The notes under the pieces are model-generated. The model saw nothing but the letters and a program-made list of their open reading frames with translations. It made no database searches and was not told where the DNA came from. This document shows positions 22,142 to 26,963 of a DNA stretch of 64,000 bases, piece after piece. The translations under genes were made by a program, and so were the position numbers. Source of the DNA: Promethearchaeota archaeon (GTDB lineage Archaea; Asgardarchaeota; Lokiarchaeia; Sigyniarchaeales; SOKP01); NCBI GenBank assembly GCA_030606485.1, contig JAUWGH010000001.1, positions 310,001 to 374,000 on the forward strand. The letters are read 5' to 3'. Each line of letters starts with the position of its first letter. Positions within the stretch are counted from its first letter, which is position 1.

Positions 22142-22438
22142 GTGGTGAAAAAAATACCAAAATTGATAATAAATATAGAAAAAGGATTTTCATTAATGCT
22201 AAATCAACACAGATGTCAAGGATGCGAAATTTGTGTTTCAGTTTGTCCTACAGGAATATTAGAAATGTCTGACCAATTGAATATGCGTGTAGCTTTTTTG
22301 CCAAAAGTGAAAGAGGGAAAGGAAAAATATTGTACTGCTTGTAAAAGATGTGAATATGCGTGTCCTATATGGGCAATATATATTGTACCAGAAATTGAGA
22401 ATGAAATTACAGTTAAAAAAGAGGAGGCAAAAATTTAG
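22142..22438 (+). CDS. korD: 2-oxoacid:ferredoxin oxidoreductase delta (ferredoxin) subunit
   Basis: A 98-residue dicluster ferredoxin. CQGCEICVSVCP (Cys25, 28, 31, 35) and CTACKRCEYACP (Cys64, 67, 70, 74) bind two [4Fe-4S] clusters, with a longer-than-usual loop between them. It is the electron exit of the 2-oxoacid:ferredoxin oxidoreductase encoded just downstream (15 bases to the next gene). The start is GTG at 22142, or a second GTG at 22145; an ATG at 22196 would leave only six residues before the first cysteine. The promoter presumably lies in the AT-rich 225-base gap to the divergent dapA. Confidence 0.9.
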   Translation: MVKKIPKLIINIEKGFSLMLNQHRCQGCEICVSVCPTGILEMSDQLNMRVAFLPKVKEGKEKYCTACKRCEYACPIWAIYIVPEIENEITVKKEEAKI

Positions 22439-22453
22439 AAAGGGTGATATTAT

Positions 22454-23632
22454 ATGAGTAATGTAAATGGTAAAAGATTCTTAAAACCTGGTAAGTATTT
22501 GATGATGGGCAATGTGGCTATGGCTGAAGGGGCTCTCTCGTCAGGTTTGAAATTTTTTGGGGGATATCCAATAACACCGAGTACAGAAGTAATCGAGCAT
22601 CTAGCAAAACGATTACCGGAAGTTGGAGGCTGTTGTATGCAAATGGAGGATGAACTAGCATCTATAAATGCAGTAATGGGTGCATCATTAGTTGGTGCTA
22701 AAGCAATGACTGCTACCTCAGGACCCGGTCTATCACTTATGACGGAAACTATTTCAATGGCAGCAAATATTGAAATTCCATTTGTTTTTTGCGATGTTCA
22801 ACGTTGTGGTCCGGGCACAGGATTTGTAACTGTTCCACATCATAACGATATAGGCTTAACCAGATTTGCTGGAAATGGAGAGTTTGAAGTAATAGCTTTT
22901 GCCCCTATGTCGTGCCAAGAATTATTTGATTTAACAATAACGGCGTTTAATTATGCGGAAACGTATAGATGTCCAATTTTCATTTTATCAGACGCTTATT
23001 TGGGACATATTCATGAAGTAGTAAATATACCTCCAAAAGAAGAAATTTTAAAAAGAGTTATTGATCGTACAATCCCAAAAGATACCAAGGGTGCAAAATT
23101 TACATATGAGGATATTAAAACTCATAAATTAACGATTCCAAAGCCTTATATCGTAGGAACTGAGTTCTGTCCTCCTTTAATCATTCATTTACCGCATAAC
23201 CAAGATGGTATACTAATGCCAGAAGAAAATTCATTAAGATTTATGAAAATTATGATTGATAAAATCAGAGATAATATAGATAAAATTAGCTTAACGGAAG
23301 AATATAAACTGGATGATGCAGAAATTATCATAATTTCATATGGTCTCCCCGTCCGGGCAAGTTATAGGGCTGTGGATTTAGCTCGCAAGAAAGGAATTAA
23401 AGTTGGAATTTTTAGGTTAATTACTGTATGGCCATTTCCAAAAGAAAAAGTTAAACAAGTCGTTGCTGGTGCTAAAGCTATAATTGTTCCGGAAATGAAT
23501 TATACTGGAGTGATTGCAGAACAAGTCGAACGAGTAACTGATCTTAATATTCCAGTTATTAAAGTACCTAAAGTAGCTACTTTACATCATCCAGATGATA
23601 TTTTAAAAGCGATTGAGGAGGTGGCGAAATAA
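22454..23632 (+). CDS. korA: 2-oxoacid:ferredoxin oxidoreductase alpha subunit
   Basis: A 392-residue pyrimidine-domain and transketolase-C-like subunit. The family pattern is clear: MGNVAMAEGAL, FFGGYPITPSTEV, MQMEDELASINAVMGAS, TATSGPGLSLMTE and RCGPGTG. The GYPITPSTE and MEDELAS signatures are those of KorA (2-oxoglutarate) type enzymes, which oxidise a 2-oxoacid with CoA to the acyl-CoA plus CO2 and reduced ferredoxin. A GGTGA ribosome site lies seven bases before ATG. The gene abuts korB with no gap. The substrate (2-oxoglutarate or a branched or other 2-oxoacid) cannot be settled from sequence. Confidence 0.92.
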   Translation: MSNVNGKRFLKPGKYLMMGNVAMAEGALSSGLKFFGGYPITPSTEVIEHLAKRLPEVGGCCMQMEDELASINAVMGASLVGAKAMTATSGPGLSLMTETISMAANIEIPFVFCDVQRCGPGTGFVTVPHHNDIGLTRFAGNGEFEVIAFAPMSCQELFDLTITAFNYAETYRCPIFILSDAYLGHIHEVVNIPPKEEILKRVIDRTIPKDTKGAKFTYEDIKTHKLTIPKPYIVGTEFCPPLIIHLPHNQDGILMPEENSLRFMKIMIDKIRDNIDKISLTEEYKLDDAEIIIISYGLPVRASYRAVDLARKKGIKVGIFRLITVWPFPKEKVKQVVAGAKAIIVPEMNYTGVIAEQVERVTDLNIPVIKVPKVATLHHPDDILKAIEEVAK

Positions 23633-24541
23633 ATGTCTGATGATGTTAGATATCCAAGTGAAAAACCAGAACATCCATATTTTGATAGTTCCTTTTCAGG
23701 AATGCTTTTAGGAACCCTTGTTTCACGATTCTGTGGAGGTTGTGGATATGGTAGTATTGGACAATTATATACAAGAGTCTTTGAAGATGAAAAGTTAGAT
23801 CCTAAATTATATCCATTAGTTATTGGGATAGGGTGTTATAGTCAAATCTTTTTCTTAGTTCATAAAAATGCTCAAAAAATGCTAACACTTCATGGTAGAG
23901 CCCCAGCAGTCGCAACTGGAATGAAAATGGCAAACCCGAAAATGAAACCGATTATCTTCTCAGGAGATGGAGATTGTTTAGGAATAGGAGGGAACCACTT
24001 TATCCATTTATGTCGCAGAAACCTTGATTGCATACTCTTTATCTTTAATAATTCTATTTATGGAATGACCGGTGGTCAAGCAGCTCCGACAACTCTATAC
24101 GGAGCTATGAGCACAACTACCCCATATAAAATGTTTGAACCACGATCAGATGGTGTAGAACTTGCTTTAGCTGCGGGTGCAAGCTATGTAGCGCGCACAA
24201 CTGTTGCCCATCCTAGGACTCTAATGAAATACTTTAAAAAAGCATTAAAACACAAGGGGACTTCAGTAATTGAGGTAATAACTCCATGTGTTACGTATTT
24301 TGGGCGGAAAAATCTTGATAATCTGGGTTCTAAAGGAGAAAAAGGGGAAATTATGGATACTGGAGGGAAAATGTTTGAGTGGATTAAAAAAAATTCTATT
24401 CATATAAATCAAGCGAAATTCATGAGTAAAGAGGAGTTATTTAATAAATATATTATAGGAGAATTCCGCTATGACCCAAGCAAGTCTGAATATTCTGAAG
24501 AATATAAAAAAATTCAAAATATCGCAATGAAAGGTGACTAA
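23633..24541 (+). CDS. korB: 2-oxoacid:ferredoxin oxidoreductase beta subunit (TPP-binding)
   Basis: A 302-residue subunit. RFCGGCGYGS (Cys34, Cys37) begins the cluster/TPP region, GDGDCLGIGGNHFIH is the Mg-TPP motif, RRNLDCILFIFNN follows and YGMTGGQAAPTT is the typical KorB phrase. With KorA it forms the catalytic core where thiamine pyrophosphate decarboxylates the 2-oxoacid. ATG follows directly on the korA stop, and a GGTGA at the end of this gene serves korC. The C-terminal 50 residues (KFMSKEELFNKY...) are a family-typical tail. Confidence 0.92.
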   Translation: MSDDVRYPSEKPEHPYFDSSFSGMLLGTLVSRFCGGCGYGSIGQLYTRVFEDEKLDPKLYPLVIGIGCYSQIFFLVHKNAQKMLTLHGRAPAVATGMKMANPKMKPIIFSGDGDCLGIGGNHFIHLCRRNLDCILFIFNNSIYGMTGGQAAPTTLYGAMSTTTPYKMFEPRSDGVELALAAGASYVARTTVAHPRTLMKYFKKALKHKGTSVIEVITPCVTYFGRKNLDNLGSKGEKGEIMDTGGKMFEWIKKNSIHINQAKFMSKEELFNKYIIGEFRYDPSKSEYSEEYKKIQNIAMKGD

Positions 24542-24544
24542 AAA

Positions 24545-25144
24545 TTGAACCGATACGAAATTAGAATTGTCGGATATGGTGGGCAAGGTATAATTACTTT
24601 GAGTAAAATGATTGCATACGCAAGTGGCATCTGTGAAGAATTATTAGTAACTCAAACTGAAGCGTATGGGGCGCAAGCAAGAGGTGGAAGAAGCTGGGCT
24701 GAAGTTGTTATCGATTTAGATAGAGAATCCAAACAGATTGATTATCCTAAAGCGTTAAAACCTTATGATCTTCTTGTTATTCTTTCGGATGCTGCAACAA
24801 AAGAGGTTAAAAAGGAAGTAATTAAAAAAGAAGAAAATACAGGACTCCTCATTTGGGATTCATCCACCATATTAGGGAAATTTCGAGCAGCAAGTAAAAT
24901 GAAAAATCTTGGTTTACCAATCCAAAAAATGGCATTAGAAAAATTTGGAGACACCGTATACGGTAATACAATCTTATTTGGAATATTTACAGTTGTAACT
25001 AAGATCTTCTCCGAAGAATCTGCAATAGAAACTATAAAACAATTTGTTCCAAGTTCAACATTAGAAAAGAATATTGAAGCTTTTAAATTTGGAAAGCAAA
25101 AGGCTGAAGAGTTTTTAACTCAATTAAAGGAGGGAATGAGTTAA
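24545..25144 (+). CDS. korC: 2-oxoacid:ferredoxin oxidoreductase gamma subunit
   Basis: A 199-residue subunit beginning RIVGYGGQGIITLSKM, followed by TEAYGAQARGGRSWAEV and GNTILFGI, all standard for the gamma domain that binds CoA and closes the catalytic core. It starts at TTG 24545, supported by GGTGA eight bases upstream and by the conserved N-terminus starting directly at that codon. A GGAGG near its own end serves the next gene, one base after the stop. It completes a D-A-B-C subunit order. Confidence 0.92.
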   Translation: MNRYEIRIVGYGGQGIITLSKMIAYASGICEELLVTQTEAYGAQARGGRSWAEVVIDLDRESKQIDYPKALKPYDLLVILSDAATKEVKKEVIKKEENTGLLIWDSSTILGKFRAASKMKNLGLPIQKMALEKFGDTVYGNTILFGIFTVVTKIFSEESAIETIKQFVPSSTLEKNIEAFKFGKQKAEEFLTQLKEGMS

Positions 25145-25145
25145 T

Positions 25146-26963
25146 ATGCAGTTCGAGAAAATCCAAAAAGGATGGAAAGAGTTAGAAGAAGAAATAATTA
25201 AAACAGGAAAATGTGTCTATTGCGGAGCTTGTAGTACGTTTTGTGAAAATATTAATTTCGATTTTGAAAAAGAAATTCCTATTGAGGATGGCTCTTGTAA
25301 AGATGTGAATACATGTAGGGATGGTTTCGGTGTCTGCTACAATTTATGCCCTAAAACCAATATTGAACAATATTCTGTCTGTAAAATGGATAAATGGACA
25401 TTTGGTAAGCAACACGATAAAATTCTTGGCCATTATAAAAAGATTTTATCAGTAAAACTCACAGATATTGCGCGAAAAAATCTACCATCAGAAACGGGAC
25501 CTATTACTGCATTGTTATCCACAGCAATGGAAGCGGGTTTAATTGATTGTGTAATAACGAATAAAAAAGATGATAATTTTCGATTCGTTCCTTTCATCGC
25601 AAAAAATAAACAAGAACTTTCTGACGGAATCGAATTTAAACCCTACCAAAGTCCTATCCTTTCAATAATAGGTAAGGCAATAAATCAAGAGTTTTCTGAT
25701 ATAGCCATTGTAGGTAATGGTTGCCAAATAGAAGCTCTAAGGAAAATGCAAAATCACCCTCGATTTGATTTTGAGGTTTTTGATTTAGTTTCTTTAGCAA
25801 TTGGGACATTTTGTTTCGGGACTTTCCACAATGAACAATTATCGGATTGTTTCAGTAAATATGGTATAAATCGTAGCGAAATATTAAACATTAAAACCGA
25901 CAAGAATAATTTTAAAATGGTCGTAACAACTAAATCTGGTAATAAAGAGATTCCTCTTAATTATCTATACGATAAATCTATACGAAATGCTTGTTTTTCT
26001 TGCTCAGATTATGTTTCTGAGTTTGCAGATATATCAGTTGGGAATGTGGGAAGCGAAGATGGATATAAAACCTTTATAATCAGGACTAAGAGAGGAAAGG
26101 AGGTTTTTAATCTAGCCATCGAAAATGGGCTCTTAGAGGCGAAACAACTTACGATAGATAACGAAGAATTAGTGTTAGATATAACTAGAAGTAGAACGGA
26201 TATAGTTAAAATTGATAAAGTTGTTGATCACTCTTCAGAAATAAAAAGCTTCCTCATAAAAAACGAAAGAATTGCCAAGGCATATAGACCTGGGATGTTC
26301 GTTATTTTATGGGTTTTAAACGCAGATTTCTTACCTATGTCAATCTCAAATGTTAATGGGAATGTAATTGAAATAACCGTACAAAAAATCGGCGAAGGGA
26401 CAGCTACACTATTTGGATTAAAGGAAGGCGATAGTATTGGAATCAGAGGTCCTTTTGGAAACACGTGGAATTGCGAAGACGCGTCAAATATTCTTATAGT
26501 TGGTGGTGGAATGGGAATTGCCGCACTTACTTCAGTTATTGAGTCTTTAAAGAAAAATAATAAAAATATATTTGCTGCAATTGGAGCTAAGGATAAATCC
26601 TCACTAATATTTGGTGATAGAATAACACTACAAATCCCTAATACACAATATGCAACTGATGATGGCTCAATTGGAAAAAAATGTTTTGTTACGGACATAA
26701 TCGAGGATATCATAGATAAAAACAACATAGATTTAATACTCACTTGTGGTCCCGAAATTATGATGAAACAAGTTTTAGAAATTGCTGAATTAAAGAAAAT
26801 TAATATTCAAGCATCTTTGGAAAGAAAAATGAAGTGTGGGGTTGGTCTGTGCGGTTCATGCTGTATTGGGGAAGAAAATAATGTTCCAGTGTGTAAAGAT
26901 GGTCCCATATTCGATTCGACCCAATTGAGAAAATTCTCTAAATTTGGAACTTATTCCAAATAA
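25146..26963 (+). CDS. FrhB-PyrK fusion: F420/FAD iron-sulfur module plus FAD/NAD(P) electron-transfer module
   Basis: A 605-residue fusion. The N-terminal half matches the FrhB/FdhB/FpoF family: CVYCGACSTFC (Cys23, 26, 29, 33), further cysteines at 51, 57, 64 and 68, ETGPITALLSTAMEAGLID, and AIVGNGCQIEALRKM. That family binds F420, FAD and [4Fe-4S]. From about residue 345 the protein becomes a PyrK-type ferredoxin reductase: YRPGMFVILW, VQKIGEGTATLFGLKEGD, GIRGPFGNTW, the nucleotide-binding ILIVGGGMGIA, CGPEIMMKQ, and the C-terminal [2Fe-2S] motif CGVGLCGSC with VPVCKDGPIF. It is joined to the Kor operon with a one-base gap. Two flavins and several clusters in one chain suggest transfer of ferredoxin electrons to F420 and/or NAD(P). 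Direction and partner are inference. Confidence 0.88.
   Translation: MQFEKIQKGWKELEEEIIKTGKCVYCGACSTFCENINFDFEKEIPIEDGSCKDVNTCRDGFGVCYNLCPKTNIEQYSVCKMDKWTFGKQHDKILGHYKKILSVKLTDIARKNLPSETGPITALLSTAMEAGLIDCVITNKKDDNFRFVPFIAKNKQELSDGIEFKPYQSPILSIIGKAINQEFSDIAIVGNGCQIEALRKMQNHPRFDFEVFDLVSLAIGTFCFGTFHNEQLSDCFSKYGINRSEILNIKTDKNNFKMVVTTKSGNKEIPLNYLYDKSIRNACFSCSDYVSEFADISVGNVGSEDGYKTFIIRTKRGKEVFNLAIENGLLEAKQLTIDNEELVLDITRSRTDIVKIDKVVDHSSEIKSFLIKNERIAKAYRPGMFVILWVLNADFLPMSISNVNGNVIEITVQKIGEGTATLFGLKEGDSIGIRGPFGNTWNCEDASNILIVGGGMGIAALTSVIESLKKNNKNIFAAIGAKDKSSLIFGDRITLQIPNTQYATDDGSIGKKCFVTDIIEDIIDKNNIDLILTCGPEIMMKQVLEIAELKKINIQASLERKMKCGVGLCGSCCIGEENNVPVCKDGPIFDSTQLRKFSKFGTYSK

What the first reader, a model, noticed from the sequence alone, without database searches (positions are those of the whole stretch)
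22142..26963. Kor operon joined to an FrhB-PyrK fusion: possible ferredoxin:F420/NAD(P) electron hub
The subunits KorD, A, B and C are followed one base later by a single chain joining an F420-dehydrogenase beta module (about residues 1-340) and a PyrK-type FAD/[2Fe-2S] reductase (about 345-605). Both modules are known separately, but I do not know this fusion as a described enzyme. Placed with a ferredoxin-reducing oxidoreductase it could form one complex that moves electrons from 2-oxoacids to F420 and NAD(P), perhaps by bifurcation or confurcation.
Basis: partly seen in the sequence, partly recalled or inferred. Interest (0 to 1): 0.8.

Follow-up and report, generated by a model that had tools for sequence, protein, structure and literature searches.

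The report
2-oxoacid oxidoreductase with built-in NAD(P) reductase
Lokiarchaeia, which are Asgard archaea related to the ancestors of eukaryotes, encode a 2-oxoacid-oxidising enzyme whose operon always ends in a fused electron-transfer protein that probably passes the electrons straight to NAD(P) instead of ferredoxin, while the part that resembles an F420 enzyme has a remodelled cofactor pocket and may serve only as a wire.

Summary
KorD, KorA, KorB and KorC (22142-25144) are followed one base later by a 605-residue FrhB-PyrK fusion. An 84-sequence AlphaFold2 model (pLDDT 87.5, pTM 0.84) matches the F420 subunit of CO dehydrogenase (8riu_B) and PyrK/NfnS. I found the fusion in 47 of 228 Asgard genomes (Lokiarchaeia and Sigynarchaeota) and in none of about 1,180 genomes from three other archaeal phyla. 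Wherever the contig allowed a check it directly follows KorC. Sister lineages have KorDABC without it. The cell has a separate pyrD-pyrK, so this is not its PyrK.

The F420 and bifurcation parts of the interpretation are weaker. The PyrK module keeps its FAD, NAD and [2Fe-2S] motifs. The FrhB module keeps all cluster cysteines, but its FAD pyrophosphate loop (QDGG) and F420 turn are replaced and no longer specially conserved, unlike eight of nine FrhB paralogues in the same genome. No bifurcating flavin module is present.

Best reading: a ferredoxin-bypassing 2-oxoacid (probably 2-oxoglutarate):NAD(P)+ oxidoreductase in which the FrhB module is mainly an iron-sulfur wire (about 0.5). F420 or dual F420/NAD(P) use remains possible. 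Nothing here was tested biochemically.

The parts
22142..22438 (+). KorD (delta): 2x[4Fe-4S] ferredoxin-like subunit, 98 aa, GTG start
   Evidence: Pfam Fer4_7 and others; best NCBIfam hit OorD, below its cut-off
22454..23632 (+). KorA (alpha): POR_N + PFOR_II, 392 aa
   Evidence: PF01855 3.7e-55; NF006412 401 bits, just under the cut-off of 411
23633..24541 (+). KorB (beta): TPP-binding subunit, 302 aa
   Evidence: PF02775; best NCBIfam hit 2-oxoglutarate:Fd oxidoreductase beta, below cut-off; the only close KorB in the genome
24545..25144 (+). KorC (gamma), 199 aa, TTG start
   Evidence: PF01558
25146..26963 (+). FrhB-PyrK fusion, 605 aa
   Evidence: AF2 model pLDDT 87.5, pTM 0.84; Foldseek 8riu_B TMt 0.81, 5jca_S 0.82, 5ksw_B 0.83
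25146..25415 (+). N-terminal ferredoxin-like domain of the fusion (residues 1-90): Cys 23, 26, 29, 33, 51, 57, 64, 68, room for two [4Fe-4S]
   Evidence: all 8 Cys invariant in A1; the same domain in 8riu_B anchors to CODH and holds two clusters (PMC11493965)
25425..26180 (+). FrhB core (residues 94-345) with [4Fe-4S] ligands C193, C223, C283, C286
   Evidence: PF04422/PF04432; Cys invariant in f1, f2 and f4
25485..25508 (+). Remodelled FAD pyrophosphate loop of the FrhB core (residues 114-121, PSETGPIT; canonical xQDGGxxT)
   Evidence: role of the loop in FrhB from PMC3930138
26199..26957 (+). PyrK module (residues 352-604): FAD and NAD(P) domains plus [2Fe-2S]
   Evidence: NF000796 above cut-off; conserved sites; tree
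26502..26516 (+). NAD(P)-binding loop GGGMG (residues 453-457)
   Evidence: the four Gly are invariant in 36 fusions
26835..26894 (+). [2Fe-2S] ligands C564, C569, C572, C583
   Evidence: PF10418; invariant in 36 fusions

Best explanation
KorDABC and the FrhB-PyrK fusion most likely form one soluble enzyme, a CoA-acylating 2-oxoacid (probably 2-oxoglutarate):NAD(P)+ oxidoreductase that bypasses free ferredoxin. KorAB/TPP oxidises the 2-oxoacid and the electrons pass to the two [4Fe-4S] clusters of KorD. Instead of a soluble ferredoxin, the ferredoxin-like N-terminus of the fusion docks there. Electrons run through its clusters and the FrhB [4Fe-4S] cluster to the PyrK [2Fe-2S], then PyrK-FAD, which reduces NAD(P)+. 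The FrhB module is mainly a structural and iron-sulfur bridge whose FAD/F420 pocket has been remodelled. Shown: gene order, domains, co-inheritance, intact ligand and PyrK motifs, altered FrhB loops. Inferred: physical complex, electron order, acceptor and substrate.
For: The operon KorDABC-fusion is conserved with translational-type spacing. In f1/f2/f4, 44 genomes have both genes; the six exceptions are contig breaks or a fragment, plus one degraded locus (G121) that lost both KorC and the fusion. Sister KorDABC operons in f3/f5/f7 lack it, so it is an added subunit. The cell has its own pyrD-pyrK, and the fusion PyrK modules form one clade of PyrK paralogues (98/88) whose standalone relatives mostly sit beside pyrD. 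PyrK FAD/NAD motifs: 94% (f1) and 97% (f4) of residues also occur in standalone PyrKs, and their conservation rank (0.71) is the same as in standalone PyrKs. FrhB FAD loops: only 58% (f1) and 40% (f4) of residues occur in F420 enzymes (own paralogues 85%); QDGG conservation rank 0.92 in F420 enzymes, 0.86 in own paralogues, 0.38 in fusions; the four cluster Cys are fully kept. The N-terminal domain plus FrhB core match CODH zeta (8riu_B), which docks through that domain where ferredoxin would (PMC11493965).
Against: Within f1 the remodelled FrhB loops are still fairly conserved (AGP, GYKPSQ, FCFGT), so a flavin or another ligand may still bind. The single f2 sequence keeps a near-canonical pocket (QAGG, AGTKW), and FrhB loop 3 is as conserved as in F420 enzymes. 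No biochemistry exists. NAD and NADP cannot be told apart from sequence.
Confidence: 0.5

Rival explanations
1. Dual outlet: the FrhB module still binds FAD and F420, so the complex delivers 2-oxoacid electrons to both F420 and NAD(P) and can transhydrogenate F420H2/NAD(P), replacing Fno.
For: F420 synthesis genes cofE and cofD are present; no f1 genome reaches the Fno cut-off; near-canonical pocket in f2; FrhB loop 3 conserved; the closest structures are F420 reductases fed by CODH and Fwd (PMC11493965).
Against: QDGG replaced in all f1 and f4 fusions, F420 turn lost, bulky E/K/R at S209 in many. Other FrhB paralogues with intact pockets exist in the genome.
Confidence: 0.25
2. The fusion is a separate soluble ferredoxin:NAD(P) (or F420) reductase, co-transcribed with Kor but coupled to it only through free ferredoxin.
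For: Its N-terminal ferredoxin-like domain could accept electrons from ferredoxin; co-transcription is not complex formation.
Against: Strict one-to-one inheritance with this Kor, no second full fusion found in the genomes searched, and precedents in which such N-terminal domains dock directly (PMC11493965).
Confidence: 0.12
3. 2-oxoacid:F420 oxidoreductase: F420 is the real acceptor and PyrK is auxiliary.
For: Homology to CODH zeta and FwdI.
Against: The FrhB pocket is altered while the PyrK sites are intact.
Confidence: 0.06
4. Flavin-based electron bifurcation or confurcation between 2-oxoacid/ferredoxin, F420 and NAD(P).
For: Two potential flavin sites and many clusters in one chain.
Against: No NfnB/GltD, HdrA, Etf or NuoF module in the operon; donor potential already below both acceptors, which are nearly equal. 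The genome carries a better candidate elsewhere (FrhB-NfnB fusion beside NfnA, L017).
Confidence: 0.04
5. The fusion is the cell's dihydroorotate dehydrogenase electron-transfer subunit placed by chance next to Kor.
For: NF000796 is above its cut-off.
Against: A complete pyrD-pyrK pair exists elsewhere in the genome, and the Kor linkage is conserved in all loci that could be checked.
Confidence: 0.01

Closest known systems
ACDS zeta subunit and FwdI of Ca. Ethanoperedens thermophilum (8riu_B, 8rja_E; PMC11493965)
   Same: N-terminal 2x[4Fe-4S] domain + FrhB core attached to a normally ferredoxin-linked enzyme; best sequence and fold match
   Different: They have no PyrK module, are attached to CODH or Fwd rather than Kor, carry a canonical FAD loop, and reduce F420 experimentally
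PyrK of dihydroorotate dehydrogenase B (1ep1, 5ksw) and NfnS/NfnA (5jca, 4ylf)
   Same: FAD + [2Fe-2S] NAD(P) reductase fold and motifs
   Different: Fused to FrhB, not beside pyrD or NfnB
KorDABC/OorDABC 2-oxoglutarate:ferredoxin oxidoreductase
   Same: All four subunits in the order D-A-B-C
   Different: Extra fused reductase subunit, absent in sister Asgard lineages
NAD(P)-linked 2-oxoacid oxidoreductases: phenylglyoxylate:NAD+ oxidoreductase (Pad) and Euglena pyruvate:NADP+ oxidoreductase (recalled from general knowledge, not tested)
   Same: A 2-oxoacid:ferredoxin-type core wired to a flavoprotein that reduces NAD(P)
   Different: Unrelated reductase modules
Fsr, FpoF, F420-dependent glutamate synthase
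   Same: N-terminal ferredoxin domain + FrhB, fused to or working with another redox module
   Different: Canonical F420 pocket and other partner modules

Membership tests
2-oxoacid:ferredoxin oxidoreductase (KorABCD type) | alpha POR_N/PFOR_II, beta TPP, gamma POR, delta 2x[4Fe-4S] | tested here: met
2-oxoacid:ferredoxin oxidoreductase (KorABCD type) | substrate 2-oxoglutarate | tested here: inconclusive
   Best NCBIfam hits are mostly 2-oxoglutarate equivalogs but below cut-off; one relative has MM-CoA mutase and an isocitrate/isopropylmalate dehydrogenase next door
FrhB / F420 dehydrogenase beta | PF04422 + PF04432 fold | tested here: met
FrhB / F420 dehydrogenase beta | four [4Fe-4S] cysteines | tested here: met
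FrhB / F420 dehydrogenase beta | FAD pyrophosphate loop QDGG | tested here: not met
   SETG here; A/T/V at G26 in 33 of 33 f1 fusions; average conservation only
FrhB / F420 dehydrogenase beta | F420 turn IGKGK and small residue at S209 | tested here: not met
   TDKNN here; N/E/K/R at 209 in most f1 fusions. FwdI also lacks a perfect turn and some F420 enzymes have N at 209, so this is weak
FrhB / F420 dehydrogenase beta | F420 reduction or oxidation | not testable with these tools
   needs assay
PyrK / DHODB electron-transfer subunit | sequence family cut-off | tested here: met
   NF000796 257 > 224 bits
PyrK / DHODB electron-transfer subunit | [2Fe-2S] Cys x4, FAD and NAD motifs | tested here: met
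PyrK / DHODB electron-transfer subunit | partner PyrD | tested here: not met
   No pyrD in the operon; a separate pyrD-pyrK exists
ACDS zeta / FwdI type F420 adaptor subunit | Fd domain + FrhB core, encoded with a low-potential dehydrogenase | tested here: met
Flavin-based bifurcating enzyme | known bifurcating flavin module (NfnB, HdrA, EtfAB, NuoF) | tested here: not met
Stable KorDABC-fusion complex | physical association | not testable with these tools

The most novel reading that the evidence does not exclude
One enzyme complex in Lokiarchaeia oxidises a 2-oxoacid and feeds both F420 and NAD(P), also acting as the F420:NAD(P) transhydrogenase in lineages without a recognisable Fno, so that 2-oxoacid oxidation, F420 and pyridine-nucleotide pools meet in one protein.
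Probability: 0.22. Interest if true: 0.75.

Novelty: new variant of a known kind. Interest (0 to 1): 0.56.

Why it matters
Models of Asgard metabolism, and of the syntrophy from which eukaryotes may have arisen, assume that 2-oxoacid oxidation yields reduced ferredoxin that leaves as H2 or formate (Imachi 2020, PMC7015854). If this Kor hands its electrons directly to NAD(P), the electron budget of this branch of Lokiarchaeia changes and 2-oxoglutarate oxidation becomes a source of NAD(P)H. It would also be a case of an F420-type module kept as an iron-sulfur wire after its own cofactor site changed, and a warning against reading every FrhB domain as F420-active.

Tried and rejected
DHODB role for the fusion: rejected (own pyrD-pyrK). 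Chance or assembly artefact: rejected (37 distinct full-length homologues). First AF2 model with 10 sequences was poor (pLDDT 64.7) and was replaced by the 84-sequence model. Reading S209 alone as a test of F420 binding: dropped, because FdhB-type F420 proteins also vary there. Plasmid search gave nothing covering the fusion. Literature searches found no description of a FrhB-PyrK fusion, but most subscription papers and preprints are not held.
Full report
What is there. Pfam and NCBIfam assign the expected domains. The fusion has three parts: an N-terminal ferredoxin-like region (8 invariant Cys, residues 23-68), an FrhB core (94-345) with the four [4Fe-4S] cysteines C193, C223, C283 and C286, and a PyrK module (352-604) with a GGGMG NAD(P) loop and [2Fe-2S] cysteines C564, C569, C572 and C583. 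A good AlphaFold2 model (pLDDT 87.5, pTM 0.84) matches 8riu_B, the F420-reductase subunit of CODH from Ca. Ethanoperedens (TM 0.81 on the target), 8rja_E (FwdI), NfnS (5jca_S) and PyrK (5ksw_B, 1ep1_B).

How widespread and how tightly linked. The window belongs to an archaeal genome of 3.75 Mb. Fusion homologues come from records titled Lokiarchaeota, Lokiarchaeia and Sigynarchaeota. In the window's phylum, 47 of 228 genomes have the fusion; a 48th match, G004, is PyrK only. A matching KorB is found in 52 genomes, and 44 have both. In families f1, f2 and f4 the exceptions are: G141 and G144, where the contig ends inside korB; G105 and G142, truncated at contig ends; G150, which shows only a C-terminal fragment; and G121, where korB is truncated and korC and the fusion are gone. 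I found no intact KorDABC without the fusion in these families, and no full fusion away from Kor. Spacing between KorC and the fusion is -20 to +9 nt in 42 of 45 loci. Genes outside the operon vary: EamA transporters, CCG + LUD-type proteins, RidA and a D-serine dehydratase-like enzyme, altronate dehydratase, aconitase-type enzymes, methylmalonyl-CoA mutase. In families f3, f5 and f7 eight KorDABC loci end at korC with no fusion (L161-L168). The fusion is therefore an added, lineage-specific fifth subunit. No fusion was found in 1,182 genomes of three other archaeal phyla.

Origin of the PyrK half. The genome has a separate pyrD-pyrK pair, so the fusion is not the cell's dihydroorotate dehydrogenase subunit. 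In a tree the fusion PyrK modules of f1 and f4 form one clade (98/88) near archaeal PyrKs and apart from the cell's own PyrK. Most standalone relatives sit next to pyrD.

Does the FrhB half still use FAD and F420? F420 is made: CofE (264 bits, cut-off 181) and CofD lie together. In FrhB of Methanothermobacter the FAD pyrophosphate is wrapped by 24QDGG, loops 71-77 and 131-138 also surround FAD (PMC3930138), and the turn 163IGKGK and residues 209-210 are near the F420 position proposed in 2013 (PMC3591093). The later, better map found that pocket empty, so the F420 contacts are less certain than the FAD contacts. I compared 19 F420-type FrhB proteins (14 from methanogen and ANME-type genomes, five from solved structures), nine FrhB paralogues of the same Asgard genome, and the fusions. 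QDGG ranks at 0.92 of the conservation scale in F420 enzymes and 0.86 in the paralogues, but 0.38 in 33 f1 fusions (random-set p = 0.79). Over all FAD loops, residues seen in F420 enzymes make up 85% in paralogues, 58% in f1 and 40% in f4. G26 is replaced in every f1 fusion, T/S74 becomes Y, Y76 becomes P, and the F420 turn is lost. The four cluster cysteines are kept in all. This pattern fits retention of the iron-sulfur path with a changed or lost flavin/F420 site. It is not proof: the f1 replacements are themselves fairly uniform, loop 3 is conserved, and the one f2 sequence is near-canonical.

Does the PyrK half still work? By the same measure, FAD and NAD motifs rank 0.71 in both standalone PyrKs and fusions, and 94-97% of motif residues are ones seen in standalone PyrKs. 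NAD versus NADP cannot be decided.

Mechanism. Best reading: 2-oxoacid + CoA is oxidised at KorAB/TPP; electrons go via KorD to the ferredoxin-like N-terminus of the fusion, which docks as the corresponding domain of CODH zeta docks to CODH (PMC11493965), through the FrhB cluster to [2Fe-2S] and FAD of PyrK and to NAD(P)+. The domain order and ligand sets are shown; docking, electron order and acceptor are inferred. Bifurcation is not needed, since the donor (about -0.5 V) lies below both acceptors (F420 -340 mV in PMC11493965; NAD(P) about -320 mV, general knowledge), and no bifurcating module is present. The substrate is probably 2-oxoglutarate (best family hits; methylmalonyl-CoA mutase and an isocitrate/isopropylmalate dehydrogenase beside the operon in L180), but scores are below the curated cut-offs.

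Comparison with known systems. The anchoring principle is that of ACDS zeta and FwdI; the outlet is that of PyrK/NfnS; the concept of a 2-oxoacid oxidoreductase wired to NAD(P) is known from other, unrelated reductase modules (general knowledge). The FrhB-PyrK combination attached to KorDABC seems undescribed in the literature I could search, which lacks most subscription papers and preprints. I rate it a new variant of a known kind.

Noticed in passing
L017 8918-9838 and 9831-12569 (G000:C8, about 107.9-111.6 kb): NfnA/SudB-like gene overlapping a 912-aa protein that joins an FrhB module with canonical QDGG to an NfnB/GltD-type flavoprotein (Fer4_20 + Pyr_redox_2). It is a better candidate than the given finding for F420/ferredoxin/NAD(P) bifurcation.
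   Followed up: partly
L015 5664-7664 (G000:C7): Adjacent but separate FrhB and PyrK-like (DHODB_Fe-S_bind) genes downstream of HdrA/MvhD-type genes: a split analogue of the fusion in an Hdr context; its PyrK-like gene is not closely related to the fusion's module.
   Followed up: partly
L169 4203-6289 (G121:C1, single-contig genome): korD, korA and a truncated korB, with korC and the fusion missing: apparent decay of the whole operon.
   Followed up: partly
L023 7911-8855 (G000:C11): Orphan 314-aa FrhB-like protein with a CODH-zeta-like N-terminal ferredoxin domain but no QDGG loop: another FrhB with an altered flavin site.
   Followed up: partly
L177 1020-3435 and L072 8776-10760 (genus g6): korC appears truncated (144 aa); in L177 small ORFs, one of them RHH-like, lie between it and korB.
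   Followed up: no
L064 1760-3798, L061 1942-3982; also in L058, L059, L066, L171, L178, L179: A CCG-domain protein and a LUD + Fer4 protein (possible 2-hydroxyacid oxidation pair) often lie beside the Kor-fusion operon, in L061 in the same direction just upstream of korD.
   Followed up: partly
Family f1 genomes: No f1 genome has an F420:NADP reductase (Fno) above the family cut-off, although F420 synthesis genes are present in the window's own genome; how F420 and NADP pools are linked there is open.
   Followed up: partly
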